From IMG/VR virus record IMGVR_UViG_3300024999_000038, positions 86,269-150,268 of that record: a stretch of 64,000 bases of DNA. The stretch is one strand, 5' to 3'. This document shows positions 47,583-54,216 of this stretch, one piece after another (position 1 is the stretch's first letter; the number at the start of each line of letters is the position of its first letter). Source of the DNA: a virus. The position numbers and the translations under genes were made by a program. Under the pieces are notes generated by a model, which worked only from the letters and a program-made list of their open reading frames with translations, was not told where the DNA came from and did not search any database.

Positions 47583-48251
47583 ATGAGTTATGATAAAGAT
47601 GTAGAAATTAGATTAGAGACAGTTAAAAATAATTCACAAAACTTAAATTTCTCAATTCCTTTAGATTATTTTTGGAATAGTTTAAGTGAAGAGGATTTAT
47701 CAGAAATCGCTAAACAATTTGTAAGTAGTGGATTATTAACTAAAGTCTTAAAAGAACTCATTGATGAACCATCTTTGCCCTCAGTCATGTTTGGTTCTAC
47801 GGATCAAAATTATATTGAATTTAAAGAAACTCTGATTAATTTAGTTGATGATTTAAAAGAAAGTTACATAAGGGATTTAGAACAGGCTGAAATGCATAGG
47901 TGGTGGCAAGTAAGTAGGAGTCTTGATAAAATTGTAAAAACCATATGTCCAGATAGAAATATACATTGCACTACACAACCTCATATTGATGGATTTTTAG
48001 TGATTGACAAAGATAGGAATAAAGACGGTCAATTTAATATAAATTTATTAGATTGGACTTGTTATATTTCCAATGAAAAAACTAATGGAAAAGATGCCGA
48101 TAATTACTTTTATGAGGTAAGGAGAGAACTTGTAAATATTATTGATAATGGCAATAGATATTATGAAATAATGGAAGATTATCGAATTAAAAATCTAAAA
48201 TTAGAAAGTAGGATTAGAGAATTAGAAAATAAATTAAAGGAGTGTAAATAA
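47583..48251 (+). CDS. Hypothetical helical protein
   Basis: 222 residues, start after AAAGGAGGATAAAATAAT. Helical, with a C-terminal coiled coil (RIKNLKLESRIRELENKLKE). No family recognised. It ends directly at the next ATG. Confidence 0.65.
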   Translation: MSYDKDVEIRLETVKNNSQNLNFSIPLDYFWNSLSEEDLSEIAKQFVSSGLLTKVLKELIDEPSLPSVMFGSTDQNYIEFKETLINLVDDLKESYIRDLEQAEMHRWWQVSRSLDKIVKTICPDRNIHCTTQPHIDGFLVIDKDRNKDGQFNINLLDWTCYISNEKTNGKDADNYFYEVRRELVNIIDNGNRYYEIMEDYRIKNLKLESRIRELENKLKECK

Positions 48252-48779
48252 ATGAAATACAAACCAACAATTATAGTAAGTGCCTTCCCTGCTTGCGGAA
48301 AATCGTATATGTTCAATAATTATAACGACAAACCATTTACTATGCTAGATTCAGATTCAAGTAATTTTAGTTGGATTAAGGATAGTGAAGGTAACAACAC
48401 AAAAGAAAGAAATCCAGAATTTCCTGAGAACTACATCAAACATATTAAAGATAACATAGGTAAAGTAGATGTTATCTTTGTGTCCAGTCATGATATTGTA
48501 AGAAAAGCATTGAATGACAATAAGATTAATTTCTTTATGGTTTATCCTGATAAAAGTATGAAACAAGAATGGATTAGACGTTTTAGAGAAAGAGAAAATA
48601 ATGAAATTTTTATCAAGTTTATTTATGATAGTTGGGATAATTTCATTGATGAAATTGAGAATGAAGAGAAATGTTTAAAAGAAAGATTATCTTTTGATAA
48701 TCCATATATTGATAATAAATATCTTGCAGGTTGTTTTGATACTAGTATGGGTAATTTGTCTAGTATGTGGTGGAATTAA
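48252..48779 (+). CDS. P-loop kinase-like protein
   Basis: 175 residues. IIVSAFPACGKSYMF is a P-loop in the form seen in phage adenylate/nucleotide kinase-like proteins; FTMLDSDSSNFSW follows as in that group, and RRFRERENN could be the lid. Probably phosphorylates a small molecule or nucleotide. AAAGGAG lies in the end of the upstream gene. Confidence 0.75.
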   Translation: MKYKPTIIVSAFPACGKSYMFNNYNDKPFTMLDSDSSNFSWIKDSEGNNTKERNPEFPENYIKHIKDNIGKVDVIFVSSHDIVRKALNDNKINFFMVYPDKSMKQEWIRRFRERENNEIFIKFIYDSWDNFIDEIENEEKCLKERLSFDNPYIDNKYLAGCFDTSMGNLSSMWWN

Positions 48780-48892
48780 GAAAAATCCAAAAAGCTAAAA
48801 CCATTGCTACATAAGGGTTTTGAAGATCAATACTTCCGATGAAAACGATGTTTGATTTGGTTTAAAAAGTACGTAAAGTAATAAATAAATAT

Positions 48893-48921
48893 TTGACATA
48901 ATTGACTTCACCATGTATTAT
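48893..48921 (+). promoter_or_regulatory. Promoter of the ligase-macro-PARP operon
   Basis: Consensus TTGACA, 17-base spacer, TATTAT. It is fused to AAATAAATATTT (48883-48894), whose last bases overlap the -35. Leader about 45 bases. Confidence 0.78.
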
Positions 48922-48974
48922 TAGATAGACAAAAGATGAGGTTTATATTTTTATAAAAAGAAGGAGAGATATTA

Positions 48975-50300
48975 ATGGAAAAAGTATTAGAAATTATTAA
49001 TCAAATTCAAAACACATCAGGACGGAACGATAAAGAATTTATTATTAAGTCAAATAAAGACAATCAATTACTTAAGGATATTTTTAAATTCGTTTATAGT
49101 TTAGAGGTAAAGACAGGTATCAAACGTAAGAAACTTGAAAAGGAAGTTAAATCTAAACCCACTATAAAAATTACAGACTTTTATAGTTTAAGAGATTTTC
49201 TTATTGTTAATGGGACTGGTTCAGATGAAACAATAGCAAATATTCAACGATTCTTGTCAGAGCAAACAGATAAAATGAAAGAACTCTACATACAAATTAT
49301 TCTTCAAGATTTAAGAGGTGGCCTTAGTGAAAAAACTATCAATAGTGCTTTAGGATATGAATTTATTTATATTCATAAACTTGAAAAGGGGGAAGTAGCC
49401 GAAGAAAGACATTTAAAATTACTTAAAGGAAAAGAATTTGGTATATATAAAAAGTTAGATGGATATAGGGCTGAAATTGAAGTTGGCAATGGCAAAGTAA
49501 AAATTATGACTTCAGGTGGAGAATTATATAAAGAACTAGTTGATTTAGAAAGAGTTCTATTGAATTCAGATTTACCACATGGGGTATTTGCCTGTGAGCT
49601 GTTAGCAATCGATCTAGAAGGAACAATGACAAGAATGGAAGTATTTAATAAGACAGGGTCAATTCTAAGAAGAGATGGAGAGAAACATGGAATTGAAGTT
49701 AATGTATTTAATTTTATTCCTGACAATGGGTTCTATGAAGGAAAACATTCTATGATTTGTAGAGATAGAAAGAATCTAGCAAAACAATTGGTAGATAAGA
49801 TTAATTCTCCATTGGTTAAAAATGTAGAACCTTTCTATATTGGAACTGATTTATCCCAAATTGATTATTGGTTTGAAAAAATGATGGAACAAGAAGACGA
49901 GGGTATTATGGTCTTACCATTAGATCAAAAGTATGTTGGGAAAAAATCATATCAACAAATGTTAAAAGTTAAAACAGAAAAAGAAGCTGATTTACGTGTA
50001 ATTGGTTTTGAAAAAGGTGAAAAAGGCAAAGAATTTGAAAATACATTGGGTAAAATAATTGTAGATTATAAAGGCAATTCTGCAAATGTAATGTGTGGTT
50101 ATAAGGTTAAATATAATTCGGAAAAATATGATGACAGAATGGTTAGAGATTATATTTGGACACATCAAGACGAAATACTAGGTAAGATTGTTAAGGTTAG
50201 GTATACCGATGAGACTACTAATGATAAAGGTGGAGTAGATTTAAGGTTGTGTAGATTGATTGAGTATCGTGACGATAAGACAGAACCCAGTTACAATTAA
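48975..50300 (+). CDS. ATP-dependent DNA ligase
   Basis: 441 residues. Motif I YKKLDGYR with adenylation Lys160, ACELLAI (motif III region), EDEGIMVL (motif IV) and LKVKTEKEADLRV (motif V), followed by an OB-fold ending KVRYTDETTN. The first 140 residues are an N-terminal helical domain. Seals nicks in phage DNA replication or repair; first gene of an operon with ADP-ribose genes. Start after AAGGAGAGATATTA. Confidence 0.93.
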   Translation: MEKVLEIINQIQNTSGRNDKEFIIKSNKDNQLLKDIFKFVYSLEVKTGIKRKKLEKEVKSKPTIKITDFYSLRDFLIVNGTGSDETIANIQRFLSEQTDKMKELYIQIILQDLRGGLSEKTINSALGYEFIYIHKLEKGEVAEERHLKLLKGKEFGIYKKLDGYRAEIEVGNGKVKIMTSGGELYKELVDLERVLLNSDLPHGVFACELLAIDLEGTMTRMEVFNKTGSILRRDGEKHGIEVNVFNFIPDNGFYEGKHSMICRDRKNLAKQLVDKINSPLVKNVEPFYIGTDLSQIDYWFEKMMEQEDEGIMVLPLDQKYVGKKSYQQMLKVKTEKEADLRVIGFEKGEKGKEFENTLGKIIVDYKGNSANVMCGYKVKYNSEKYDDRMVRDYIWTHQDEILGKIVKVRYTDETTNDKGGVDLRLCRLIEYRDDKTEPSYN

Positions 50301-50315
50301 GAAAGGAATGATTAT

Positions 50316-50771
50316 ATGATTAAAATAGTTGATGGAGACATTTTGCAAGCAACAGAAGATATATGGTGTCACCAGACAAATGCAAAGGGTGTAATGGGTG
50401 GAGGAATCGCAAAACAAACCAAAGAAAAGTATCCAGAGGTTTATAAAGCATACAAAGAATTATGCGAAAAACACAATTCAAAAGATTTATTAGGAGCAGT
50501 TCAATATGTTGAATGTCATGATGGATATATTATAGCAAATTTATTTGGACAAGAGGGTTTTGGTAGAAATAAACAATATACTGACTATAATGCTTTAAGA
50601 AATGCATTAAATATTGTTTACAAAAGAGTAAAACGATATCATGAATCAGTTGCAATTCCGTTCAATATTGGATGCGGTTTAGCAGGAGGTTCTTGGCCTT
50701 TTGTGTATAGTATGATCGAAGAAGTTTTTCACGATTACGATGTAACTCTATATAGATGGGAGGTGAAATAA
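50316..50771 (+). CDS. Macro-domain ADP-ribose hydrolase-like protein
   Basis: 151 residues, a stand-alone macro domain: IVDGDILQA, CHQTNAKGVMGGGIAKQ, VAIPFNIGCGLAGGSW, as in Poa1p-type ADP-ribose-1''-phosphate phosphatases. It binds or removes ADP-ribose. It stops one base before the PARP gene, so eraser and writer are made together. Confidence 0.9.
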   Translation: MIKIVDGDILQATEDIWCHQTNAKGVMGGGIAKQTKEKYPEVYKAYKELCEKHNSKDLLGAVQYVECHDGYIIANLFGQEGFGRNKQYTDYNALRNALNIVYKRVKRYHESVAIPFNIGCGLAGGSWPFVYSMIEEVFHDYDVTLYRWEVK

Positions 50772-50772
50772 T

Positions 50773-51999
50773 TTGAGCTATGACTTTAAAAGTTTATATT
50801 TAGTAAAAGTTGAGCCAAATGCGAATAATAATAAGTTCTACCGTATGATCCAGACAGATAATAATAATTTTACTGTAGAGTATGGTCGTATTGGAGCAGG
50901 AGGTTTTCAAACAACACATTATGATATGAGTCAATGGAATAAAAAAGCAAAAGAAAAAGAGAAGAAGGGTTATGCAGATAATACTAGATTAGTTGCAGAA
51001 GTTATTGTAAAAGACAAAAAGAAAAAAGAATATCTAGACATTCCAAATCAAGTAATCGCATCTATTGTGTCAAGGCTTCAATCTATGGCACGACAAGCTA
51101 TTGCTGATAATTATACAATTTCTTCTAATAAAGTTACTCAAGTAATGATAGATGAAGCACAATTGACTTTAGATGGTTTAATGAATGCCGATAATATTGA
51201 ATTGTTTAATAAAATTTTAGTAGAATTATTTAAGATTATTCCACGGAAGATGAAAAAGGTTAAAGATAATTTAGCTAAAAAGGTTGAAGATTTTGGTGAG
51301 ATTATTCAGAAGGAACAAGATTTACTCGATGTAATGAAGGGGCAAGTAGTAACCCAATCCATAACTAAAGAAGACGAAGAAGATATTATTGAAAACGAAC
51401 CAGTCAATAATCAAACTATTTTGGATGTTATGGGTTTGCAATTTGAAGAAATAACTGAAAAAGAAAAAGAGTTGATTAAGAAGAATCTTGGTTCAATCGG
51501 TGATAAATTCTATCAAGCATGGAAAGTCGTAAATACAAAGACACAAGAGAAATTTGATACATATATTAAAGACAATAATATCAAAAATAAAAAACTATTG
51601 TTTCATGGTAGCAGGAATGAAAATTGGTGGAACATTATCAACACAGGATTAGTTCTAAGGCCATCAGCAGTAATCACAGGAAAGATGTTTGGGCATGGCA
51701 TATATTTCGCCCCTAAAGCCCAAAAGAGTCTAGGATATACCTCTTTACATGGTTCATATTGGGCAGGAGGAAGTTCGAATTCGGCATTCATGAGTTTGTA
51801 TGATGTGGCCTATGGTAAACCTTACGATGTTCATTCTTTTGATAATGTGTATCATAATTTTAATTATGAGTTGTTACAAAGGCACTGCCCAGGTGCTCAT
51901 TGCTTACATGCTCACGAAGGAAGTATGTTAAGAAATGATGAGATTATTGTCTACAAAGAAGACCAATTAACAATTAAATATTTAATAGAACTAAGATAA
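50773..51999 (+). CDS. WGR-domain poly(ADP-ribose) polymerase
   Basis: 408 residues, TTG start after GGGAGGTGAAATAAT. Residues 1-75 are a WGR domain (FYRMIQTDNNNFTVEYGRIG), 85-230 the helical regulatory part, 270-408 the PARP catalytic fold. The H-Y-E triad is visible: His278 in LFHGSRNENW, Tyr311 in GIYFAPKAQKS, Glu390 in LRNDEIIVY. Uses NAD to ADP-ribosylate protein or DNA ends, typically on sensing DNA breaks. Encoded with a ligase and a macro domain. Confidence 0.93.
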   Translation: MSYDFKSLYLVKVEPNANNNKFYRMIQTDNNNFTVEYGRIGAGGFQTTHYDMSQWNKKAKEKEKKGYADNTRLVAEVIVKDKKKKEYLDIPNQVIASIVSRLQSMARQAIADNYTISSNKVTQVMIDEAQLTLDGLMNADNIELFNKILVELFKIIPRKMKKVKDNLAKKVEDFGEIIQKEQDLLDVMKGQVVTQSITKEDEEDIIENEPVNNQTILDVMGLQFEEITEKEKELIKKNLGSIGDKFYQAWKVVNTKTQEKFDTYIKDNNIKNKKLLFHGSRNENWWNIINTGLVLRPSAVITGKMFGHGIYFAPKAQKSLGYTSLHGSYWAGGSSNSAFMSLYDVAYGKPYDVHSFDNVYHNFNYELLQRHCPGAHCLHAHEGSMLRNDEIIVYKEDQLTIKYLIELR

Positions 52000-52034
52000 G
52001 ATCAAAAAATAAAAAATAAAGGAGATATGAAAGA

Positions 52035-52334
52035 ATGAGTAATAGAGATGCAGAGATTAAAACAATTAAATATTATGGAACGAAACAGTATTTTGTAGAA
52101 ACAGACGCAAGGACAGGAGAAGTTATTAAAGATAGTTCTTTTAAGATAAAAACAAAAAGTGAACGAGTAATACATAGTGATTTGGCAACTATAGTAATTC
52201 TTGATGATGGGTCTAAAGGTGTGGCAAAGTGTATGCCAGAAGACGAATATGATAAGACAAAGGGAATTAAGATTGCATATCTTAAAGCAAAGATTAAATC
52301 ATTGAATAAAGAGTTGAAAGAACTGATCAAGTAA
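52035..52334 (+). CDS. Hypothetical small protein
   Basis: 99 residues, start after AAAGGAGATATGAAAGA. Beta-rich first 60 residues and a C-terminal coiled helix (KAKIKSLNKELKELIK). Last gene of the ligase-PARP unit. Function unknown. Confidence 0.65.
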   Translation: MSNRDAEIKTIKYYGTKQYFVETDARTGEVIKDSSFKIKTKSERVIHSDLATIVILDDGSKGVAKCMPEDEYDKTKGIKIAYLKAKIKSLNKELKELIK

Positions 52335-52349
52335 TTAGACAAATAAAAT

Positions 52350-52539
52350 AATTGAGCGAGGGAATGAAAAAACAGATCCAGTCACAATAAAAACAGAATC
52401 CCAAACTGTGTGATTAATGATAAAACTGGGTAATGCTCAATTTATAATACGATATGTTTAAGGACTAACTAGGATTCGGTAACTGAAAACTACAAAAGGC
52501 TTTTGCTAAGTGTTTCACTTTTGTAGCTGTTAGTCCTTA
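52350..52539 (+). ncRNA. Candidate structured non-coding RNA
   Basis: No reading frame spans these 190 bases. Two closed domains are visible. Domain 1: AATTGAGC/GCTCAATT (52350-52357 with 52435-52442) encloses CCAGT/ACTGG and CACA/TGTG. Domain 2: an 11-bp perfect stem TAAGGACTAAC/GTTAGTCCTTA (52459-52469 with 52529-52539) encloses CTACAAAAG/CTTTTGTAG (9 bp) and a small TTCGG hairpin. Domain 2 ends in TTATTT. Nested perfect stems in AT-rich DNA suggest a folded RNA. It is not a tRNA. Confidence 0.5.
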
Positions 52540-52598
52540 TTTAATGAAAAATAATTCATAATATTATAAATTTCGTAGAGAAAGAAGGTGAATAATAA

Positions 52599-52823
52599 AT
52601 GGAAACAAATTTAAGTATAATTAGTATTGATAATCTTATTGAGAATTTAAGAAAAATGGAAAAAGTTAATCATAAAAAAGTCTTCGTAATAAAATATGAT
52701 ACTTCTGGTTGGCTTCATATTACACAAATGGATAAAGAGTATCTAGAATCTAAAATAAAATGTAAATTGGACGTTAGGATAGATAACGACAACGACATAC
52801 TTCAAATAGCAATATTTTCATAA
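52599..52823 (+). CDS. Hypothetical small protein
   Basis: 74 residues, start after AGAAGGTGAATAATAA. N-terminal helix then beta strands with acidic loops (RIDNDNDILQIAIFS). Function unknown. Confidence 0.65.
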   Translation: METNLSIISIDNLIENLRKMEKVNHKKVFVIKYDTSGWLHITQMDKEYLESKIKCKLDVRIDNDNDILQIAIFS

Positions 52824-52882
52824 TTAACAAGCTGTTGATTTAAAATATCGATTTTATAGTATAGAAAAAGGATGTGTTAACA

Positions 52883-53182
52883 ATTATTAAACTATTAGAA
52901 AAAATACAAGAATTAAGTATTCAAAATGGTAAGACATTGGAACAAATATGTCTTAAACTATCAGAAGAAACTGGTGAATGTTCACAAGCGTTATTATCTT
53001 ATGTAGATGCTGAAGGAAGTATTTACAAAGGGTTAGGTTCACAAGATGTTAAAGAAGAATGTATAGATGTAATTATGGTTGCCATATCATTGTTTTATAA
53101 ACTTGGTGGCAATAATGAAGAATTGGTTAATCTTCTTAATGAAAAAATGAAGAAATGGCAAAATAAAGTTAATATAAAATAA
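52883..53182 (+). CDS. MazG-like pyrophosphohydrolase, likely AUU start
   Basis: 99 residues from ATT 52883, ten bases after AAAGGA; this yields IKLLEKIQELSIQNGKTLEQICLKLSEETGECSQAL, the usual MazG-like opening. The GTG at 52874 touches the ribosome site. The EETGE helix and VKEECIDVIMVAISLFYKLGG (ExxxD) form the metal site. These all-helical enzymes hydrolyse NTPs or alarmones. Confidence 0.8.
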   Translation: MIKLLEKIQELSIQNGKTLEQICLKLSEETGECSQALLSYVDAEGSIYKGLGSQDVKEECIDVIMVAISLFYKLGGNNEELVNLLNEKMKKWQNKVNIK

Positions 53183-53208
53183 ATATAATTTGTAAGGAGA
53201 GTTTGATA

Positions 53209-54216
53209 ATGAATATAGAATGGTATGAAAATATACCTGTTATGCTTAATAATCATGGAGACCCATTAACAGACAATCAAGTAGAAAGTACAATACTTAA
53301 AGTTAAATCATTAGTGGGTTGTGACAATGTGGTGGGAATTTGTACAAAAGCTGTTCCAAGTGAGAGTGCATATCAACAACTTAAACAAATAATGAATATA
53401 AAAGATGTAAAATTATTTATGGCGTATTCTTTAACTGGCTTAGATGAAGGAAATTATAGTTTTGAAGAAAGAGAAGAAACTATAATGCGACTATATGATA
53501 TGTTTGGTCAAATGAACATACTTCTTAGACCACTTATAAAAGGAAGGAATGATTCACATGAAAATATCAAGCGTATTGTTGAAATTGCTGCTGAAACTGG
53601 TAATAATATAATTTTAGGTGGATTACATAATAGAAAATTATTAAAGCAATTGAAGGATGATACTAAAGGTTACTTTATTGATTGTTGTAATGCTAATGGG
53701 GTAAGATACTTCAATAAAACATCTTGTGTAATTGCATATCAATATAATACAACTTGTAAAGTGCATGATATTGTAAACAATAAACCAAAGAATCTAGACG
53801 TTATTGATAGACTAGGATATAAATATACATTGTATAATGGTCATATATTATTAGATTGGGCTTCATCAGGAGATATGAATTTAGTAAGGTATATTACAGA
53901 GTCTTTACCGTACACTAAAAAATTGACATCTCGATTGAATCGAATATCATCTAATGAAAATCATAATTATGAACTTACATCTGGGTGGTTATCTTGGAGT
54001 AATAATGCCGATTGTCCGATAAAGTGTGACTATTGTGTTATGTCACTAATAGACTATTTGGTTGATAAAACTCCCGTAGGTTGTCATCCAAAAGATTTGC
54101 AAGATATAACAATCCGTGATACTTTTGATGGTGATGCCATAGATGTGGTAGCAAAGGATAAGTATATTTCATACAACGATTATAGAGTACCACAAGATTG
54201 CATAAAGTATAGATGA
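53209..54216 (+). CDS. Radical-SAM-like protein with C-terminal CxxxCxxC
   Basis: 335 residues. The first 140 residues read like radical-SAM barrel strands (VVGICTKAVPS, LFMAYSLTGLDEG, REETIMRLYDMFGQMNILLRPLIKGRNDSHENIKRIV, NNIILGG). The cluster motif is not at the N terminus: DCPIKCDYC (Cys269, 273, 276) lies near the C terminus. This suggests a permuted or remodelled radical-SAM enzyme. It overlaps the nucleotidyltransferase gene by four bases. Start after AAGGAGAGTTTGATA. Substrate unknown. Confidence 0.62.
   Translation: MNIEWYENIPVMLNNHGDPLTDNQVESTILKVKSLVGCDNVVGICTKAVPSESAYQQLKQIMNIKDVKLFMAYSLTGLDEGNYSFEEREETIMRLYDMFGQMNILLRPLIKGRNDSHENIKRIVEIAAETGNNIILGGLHNRKLLKQLKDDTKGYFIDCCNANGVRYFNKTSCVIAYQYNTTCKVHDIVNNKPKNLDVIDRLGYKYTLYNGHILLDWASSGDMNLVRYITESLPYTKKLTSRLNRISSNENHNYELTSGWLSWSNNADCPIKCDYCVMSLIDYLVDKTPVGCHPKDLQDITIRDTFDGDAIDVVAKDKYISYNDYRVPQDCIKYR

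What the first reader, a model, noticed from the sequence alone, without database searches (positions are those of the whole stretch)
48975..51999. Ligase, ADP-ribose eraser and PARP writer in one phage operon
An ATP-dependent ligase is followed by a macro domain and a WGR-PARP with intact H-Y-E triad, spaced by 15 and 1 bases under one promoter. PARPs are rare in phages; writer-eraser pairing with a ligase suggests break-sensing DNA repair, or NAD-based interference with host defence such as ADP-ribosylating defence proteins.
Basis: partly seen in the sequence, partly recalled or inferred. Interest (0 to 1): 0.8.

Follow-up and report, generated by a model that had tools for sequence, protein, structure and literature searches.

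The report
Phage PARP–macro pair beside ligase
A virus of bacteria carries, side by side, a DNA-sealing enzyme, an enzyme predicted to tag broken DNA or nearby proteins with ADP-ribose, and an enzyme predicted to remove the tag; related viruses keep the same arrangement even when individual genes have been swapped, which suggests a DNA-end repair toolkit resembling one known from animal cells.

Summary
In detail: an ATP-dependent DNA ligase (48975-50300), a macrodomain (50316-50771) and a WGR-PARP with an intact H-Y-E triad (50773-51999) are packed 15 and 1 bases apart on a 150-kb phage contig. It is not an accident of one genome. Of 49 PARP clusters (90% identity) with enough upstream sequence, 45 have a macrodomain nearby, 39 immediately upstream; ATP-dependent ligases lie within about 4 kb in 19. 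Far flanks held 1 macrodomain and 1 ligase in 439 kb. Parts are exchanged while the order stays: L002 and L003 have 95%-identical PARPs but 32%-identical ligases; L003 and L028 differ in macrodomain type between conserved neighbours; some relatives use an NAD+-dependent ligase. The alternative erasers belong to the SCO6735 and TARG1 families, whose studied members remove ADP-ribose from DNA. The PARP model matches break-bound PARP1/PARP2, including a helical domain Pfam misses. Best reading: a break-activated, reversible ADP-ribosylation module serving phage DNA-end repair. No activity was measured. A published survey of viral NAD+/ADP-ribose systems does not mention the trio in the parts read.

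The parts
48893..48921 (+). promoter-like sequence TTGACA-N17-TATTAT ahead of the ligase
   Evidence: consensus scan, 11 of 12 matches, the best in the region; no terminator-like site in 48200-53300
48975..50300 (+). ATP-dependent DNA ligase, 441 aa, motif I KLDG present
   Evidence: PF01068 E=2.9e-8, phrog_114 E=2.8e-67; PDB 6rau ATP-dependent DNA ligase E=2e-15
50316..50771 (+). macrodomain, 151 aa, SCO6735/DarG-like: keeps the Gln (NLFGQ) that replaces the TARG1 catalytic Lys in SCO6735; predicted ADP-ribosyl hydrolase
   Evidence: PF01661; PDB 5e3b (SCO6735) E=1e-11, also 5m31; alignment A2
50773..51999 (+). WGR - helical domain - PARP catalytic domain, 408 aa, TTG start; H278-Y311-E390
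   Evidence: PF05406 and PF00644; invariants; AlphaFold model pLDDT 85.9, helices 93-191 between WGR and ART; Foldseek best hits PARP1/PARP2 on DNA breaks, E about 1e-20
52035..52334 (+). 99-aa protein of unknown function, possible accessory: a homologue follows PARP in 8 of the first 16 relatives
   Evidence: tblastn on loci L002, L003, L004, L005, L008, L011, L012, L014
48252..48779 (+). P-loop-like protein (phrog_4182, unknown function) upstream of the ligase; a homologue is also upstream of the ligase in L008 and L011; probably a neighbour, not a member

Best explanation
The three genes form a reversible ADP-ribosylation module coupled to phage DNA ligation. The PARP is inferred to be an NAD+-dependent writer held inactive by its helical domain and switched on when its WGR domain binds a 5'-phosphorylated nick or break. 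It then places ADP-ribose near or on the break: on itself or on repair proteins as PARP1-3 do, or, my favoured specific case, directly on the terminal 5'-phosphate as PARP3 does in vitro. The macrodomain removes the mark, and the ligase seals the restored end. ADP-ribose would thus be a temporary cap or flag protecting phage DNA ends until they can be joined. Shown here: the gene order, its conservation, intact catalytic residues, domain architecture and component swapping. Inferred: enzymatic activity, break activation, DNA as substrate, and the order of steps.
For: (1) Association: macrodomain near PARP (within 1.5 kb upstream, or downstream close by) in 45 of 49 clusters, 39 immediately upstream; ATP-dependent ligase within about 4 kb in 19, both in 18; far flanks hold 1 macro and 1 ligase in 439 kb. 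(2) Replacement with slot conservation: L002/L003 PARP 95%, ligase 32%; L003/L028 PARP 76%, ligase 74%, macro 30%; LigA takes the ligase position in L039, L053, L081 and lies 2 kb upstream in L090; at least 14 ligase-state and 6 macro-type changes on the PARP tree. (3) Both erasers belong to families with DNA de-ADP-ribosylating members: TARG1 (E=8e-25; K84 and D125 kept in most; PMC5725667) and SCO6735 (E=1e-11; PMC9411070). (4) Break-sensing architecture; PMC5966428 places DNA-dependence in WGR regions that match window residues 18-23, 37-41 and 62-67. (5) Other upstream neighbours are DNA polymerase III alpha, ERCC4 nuclease and LigA; 20 of 22 large PARP records encode a ligase, 18 NAD-dependent and 2 ATP-dependent. 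(6) Chemistry precedent: PARP3 modifies 5'-phosphates, and ligases can act on such ends (PMC5843604).
Against: No activity data. Only about 40% of clusters have an ATP-dependent ligase adjacent; in most LigA-encoding relatives the ligase lies elsewhere, so the tight core is macro-PARP. About a dozen TARG1-type macros have lost the catalytic Asp, so erasing may be lost or altered there. Characterised SCO6735/TARG1 relatives also act on proteins, so DNA is not proven as substrate. PMC5843604 reports that ATP blocks direct ligation of ADP-ribosylated ends, so the eraser step is needed in this scheme. Proximity of replication genes could partly explain ligase adjacency.
Confidence: 0.55

Rival explanations
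1. Macro-PARP is a toxin-antitoxin or superinfection-exclusion pair of a temperate phage, like DarTG: the PARP modifies DNA or host protein when breaks signal a competing infection, and the macrodomain is the antitoxin. The ligase is a bystander or a damage-repair add-on.
For: Macro-PARP coupling is broader than ligase linkage; DarG-type macrodomains are among the relatives of the window macrodomain; the phage has an integrase and anti-repressors; a macro-PARP pair survives near an integrase-like and a transposase-like gene in a Lachnospiraceae chromosome contig (L096).
Against: The PARP has WGR plus helical regulation rather than a constitutive toxin architecture; a few relatives keep PARP without a detected macro (L017, L032, L035, L088); catalytic-site loss in several macros; recurrent ligase presence at the same slot.
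Confidence: 0.2
2. Counter-defence or host takeover: the PARP modifies host proteins (RNA polymerase, nucleases, defence proteins), as proposed for jumbo-phage PARPs, and the macrodomain limits self-modification.
For: Published proposal that phage PARPs act like T4 Alt/Mod (PMC7824862); the window macro type is common in phages, 1556 records.
Against: Gene context is replication/repair; no virion or early-injected context seen; a WGR domain is conserved in 49 of 52 relatives.
Confidence: 0.15
3. Separate housekeeping genes kept together by modular evolution: the macro clears ADP-ribose by-products, the ligase replicates DNA, the PARP does something unrelated.
For: Each component also occurs alone in phages.
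Against: 45 of 49 macro association against 1 macro in 439 kb of far flank; independent replacement of each gene within the same slot.
Confidence: 0.1

Closest known systems
Human PARP2/PARP3 with TARG1/MACROD2 and DNA ligase III/IV (break-dependent reversible ADP-ribosylation)
   Same: WGR-helical-ART order, H-Y-E triad, TARG1-type eraser in many relatives, ligase in the same cluster
   Different: viral, minimal and tightly clustered; no zinc fingers; activity unmeasured; the window macro is SCO6735-like rather than TARG1-like
Bacterial WGR-PARPs (Clostridioides difficile CD160 PARP, Herpetosiphon PARP)
   Same: same domains; Tyr usual in the first position of the WGR motif; helical domain often not seen by Pfam; DNA-dependent activity reported for these two (PMC5966428, PMC4245714)
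   Different: in the phages the gene is paired with a macrodomain and often a ligase
DarTG and SCO6735 DNA ADP-ribosylation systems
   Same: macrodomain of the same ALC1-like class that can remove ADP-ribose from DNA (PMC9411070)
   Different: the writer is a WGR-PARP, not DarT
Cellulophaga phage phi17:2 and phi4:1 PARP
   Same: phage WGR-PARP; in phi17:2 a DNA ligase lies one gene away
   Different: no macrodomain detected within 8 kb in phi17:2; ligase downstream

Membership tests
DNA-dependent PARP (PARP1/2/3 and bacterial WGR-PARP clade) | PARP catalytic domain with H-Y-E triad | tested here: met
   PF00644 in 52 of 52; H278, Y311, E390 invariant
DNA-dependent PARP (PARP1/2/3 and bacterial WGR-PARP clade) | WGR domain with conserved DNA-contact regions | tested here: met
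   PF05406 in 49 of 52; N18, N20, K21, G38, R39, K62, K65, G66, Y67 invariant
DNA-dependent PARP (PARP1/2/3 and bacterial WGR-PARP clade) | helical regulatory domain between WGR and ART | tested here: met
   predicted helices 93-191; fold alignment spans break-bound PARP1/PARP2; Pfam PARP_reg itself not matched
DNA-dependent PARP (PARP1/2/3 and bacterial WGR-PARP clade) | DNA-break-stimulated NAD+ consumption | not testable with these tools
   needs biochemistry
TARG1 macrodomain | catalytic Lys84/Asp125 dyad | tested here: not met
   the window macro lacks both; TARG1-type macros of relatives such as L006, L007, L009, L028 have both
SCO6735-like macrodomain | sequence match and catalytic Gln85 equivalent | tested here: met
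   5e3b E=1e-11, NLFGQ aligned to NMIGQ; role of Gln85 from PMC9411070
ATP-dependent DNA ligase | adenylation domain with KxDG motif | tested here: met
   PF01068 over cut-off, phrog_114, KLDG in sequence
DarTG toxin-antitoxin system | DarT-family writer | tested here: not met
   the writer is PF00644 PARP with WGR; no DarT family matched

The most novel reading that the evidence does not exclude
Phages use reversible ADP-ribosylation of their own DNA 5'-phosphate ends as a dedicated cap-and-ligate cycle: the PARP caps breaks, the macrodomain uncaps them and the adjacent ligase seals them. This would be a viral end-protection pathway encoded by one gene cluster, with DNA itself as the physiological PARP target.
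Probability: 0.25. Interest if true: 0.92.

Novelty: new variant of a known kind. Interest (0 to 1): 0.72.

Why it matters
Phage PARPs are known one by one and have been guessed to modify host proteins. A recurrent writer-eraser-ligase cluster, with parts swapped but order kept, ties them to phage DNA-end metabolism instead. It gives a three-gene, phage-sized system for asking whether DNA-end ADP-ribosylation, shown in vitro for PARP3, has a physiological role.

Tried and rejected
Gene phi17:2 gp030, between PARP and ligase, was suspected to be a macrodomain but no macro match was found. RNA families and tRNAs in the window: none. TGA codons inside PARP of L008, L009 and L010 were considered as recoding; L016 has an Arg codon at the L009/L010 site, so a nonsense mutation or assembly variant is simpler there. 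The DUF6924 hit in PARP residues 47-180 is below its cut-off and was ignored. My first ligase counts missed NAD-dependent ligases; Pfam scans corrected this. The idea that the phage ligase seals ADP-ribosylated ends directly was set aside as the main route because ATP is reported to abort that reaction (PMC5843604).

Full report
What is there. The ligase matches ATP-dependent DNA ligases, the middle gene is a macrodomain, and the third is a WGR-PARP. The window is the last 64 kb of a 150,268-base virus record. That record also carries portal, terminase (weak match), integrase and anti-repressor genes, so it is a tailed, probably temperate phage. PARP relatives in a Tissierellia MAG contig and a Lachnospiraceae chromosome contig and the 29% G+C suggest a Firmicutes host; this is inference.

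Conservation. The first scan of IMG/VR gave 16 relatives; most with enough sequence keep ligase, macro and PARP in that order. A profile-based scan found 169 relatives, of which 80 were kept. After clustering PARPs at 90% identity and setting aside contigs truncated upstream, 49 clusters remained. A macrodomain lies near (within 1.5 kb upstream, or close downstream as in L004) in 45, and within 250 bases upstream in 39. An ATP-dependent ligase lies within roughly 4 kb in 19, and both in 18. Parts of the same loci more than 3 kb from PARP, 439 kb in all, contained one macrodomain and one ligase. The macro and ligase profiles were grown from these loci, which biases toward near hits to some degree, but all ORFs were searched alike.

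Swapping. L002 and L003 have PARPs 95% identical and ligases only 32% identical. L003 and L028 have PARPs 76% and ligases 74% identical but macrodomains 30% identical. In L039, L053 and L081 the gene just before the macrodomain is an NAD+-dependent LigA, and in L090 LigA lies 2 kb upstream. On the PARP tree macro type changes at least 6 times and ligase state at least 14 times; the tree is a quick one with long outgroup branches. Each part has therefore been exchanged while its place was kept, which is better explained by joint function than by shared descent of one block.

The eraser. In most clusters the slot holds a TARG1-type macrodomain (PDB 4j5r E=8e-25 for the L007 copy) with the TARG1 Lys/Asp dyad usually kept. 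The window version is of the SCO6735 type, whose studied member uses a Gln in place of the Lys and removes ADP-ribose from DNA and protein (PMC9411070); the Gln is present in the window protein. Human TARG1 removes ADP-ribose from DNA ends (PMC5725667). About a dozen relatives have lost the TARG1 Asp and keep the Lys; these may be binders rather than erasers.

The writer. All 52 aligned PARPs have the catalytic domain and 49 match WGR. The H-Y-E triad and the WGR residues corresponding to the DNA-dependence regions reported for bacterial PARPs (PMC5966428) are invariant or nearly so. The AlphaFold model (mean pLDDT 85.9) has a helical bundle at residues 93-191 between WGR and ART, and its best PDB matches are PARP1 and PARP2 bound to DNA breaks (E about 1e-20; TM-scores 0.5-0.7, so domain orientation is uncertain). 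This supports, but does not show, break activation.

Context. Other genes directly upstream of the pair are DNA polymerase III alpha, ERCC4 nuclease and LigA. Of 22 large PARP-bearing virus records, 18 encode LigA and 2 an ATP-dependent ligase. A published survey gives LigA in 12% of medium-sized and 32% of jumbo phages (PMC9503650), so ligase co-occurrence looks high, though these records are related.

Mechanism. PARP3 places ADP-ribose on 5'-phosphates of DNA ends in vitro, and such ends can be ligated in the absence of ATP (PMC5843604); hydrolases including TARG1 remove it (PMC5725667). In an ATP-rich cell the direct ligation would be blocked, so the likeliest order is write, erase, seal. 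That is inference; protein targets at the break are equally compatible with the sequence evidence.

Prior knowledge. Phage PARPs have been noted before (PMC4245714, PMC7824862) and were proposed to act on host proteins. The survey of viral NAD+/ADP-ribose systems (PMC9503650), in the section and passages read, does not mention a PARP-macro-ligase cluster. Among isolates, Cellulophaga phage phi17:2 has a ligase one gene away from PARP but no detected macrodomain. The literature held is open-access only, so prior description elsewhere cannot be excluded.

Verdict. A real, recurrent and apparently undescribed phage module; mechanism inferred, not shown.

Noticed in passing
L014:5105-7525: The ligase ORF is 806 aa: a LAGLIDADG intein (Intein_splicing match 171-539) sits shortly after the ligase active-site region.
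   Followed up: partly
L005:3297-5397; L030:2263-3471; L085:4651-5376: Homing-endonuclease-like genes (GIY-YIG, NUMOD3; some judged by eye) are inserted between or near the module genes, and in L030 one interrupts the ligase.
   Followed up: partly
L053, L059, L063, L067, L076, L080, L081, L086 macrodomains: TARG1-type macrodomains that keep the catalytic Lys but have lost the Asp; possibly readers rather than erasers.
   Followed up: partly
L088:6107-9212: Two WGR-PARP genes nearly in tandem, no macrodomain detected.
   Followed up: no
L008:8145, L009:6244, L010:8298: In-frame TGA inside otherwise intact PARP genes; in L008 it stands where relatives have Trp, in L009/L010 where L016 has Arg.
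   Followed up: partly
L063:6418-7578; L093:5224-6348: Adenylosuccinate-synthetase-like genes upstream of the macro-PARP pair (one Pfam match in the batch scan; the other judged by eye); a modified-base genome is possible.
   Followed up: no
window:52035-52334: Small unknown protein whose homologue follows PARP in many relatives and may be a fourth member.
   Followed up: partly
window:54213-54911: AbiEii-family nucleotidyltransferase (PF08843 E=1e-5), possibly a toxin-like or defence gene.
   Followed up: no
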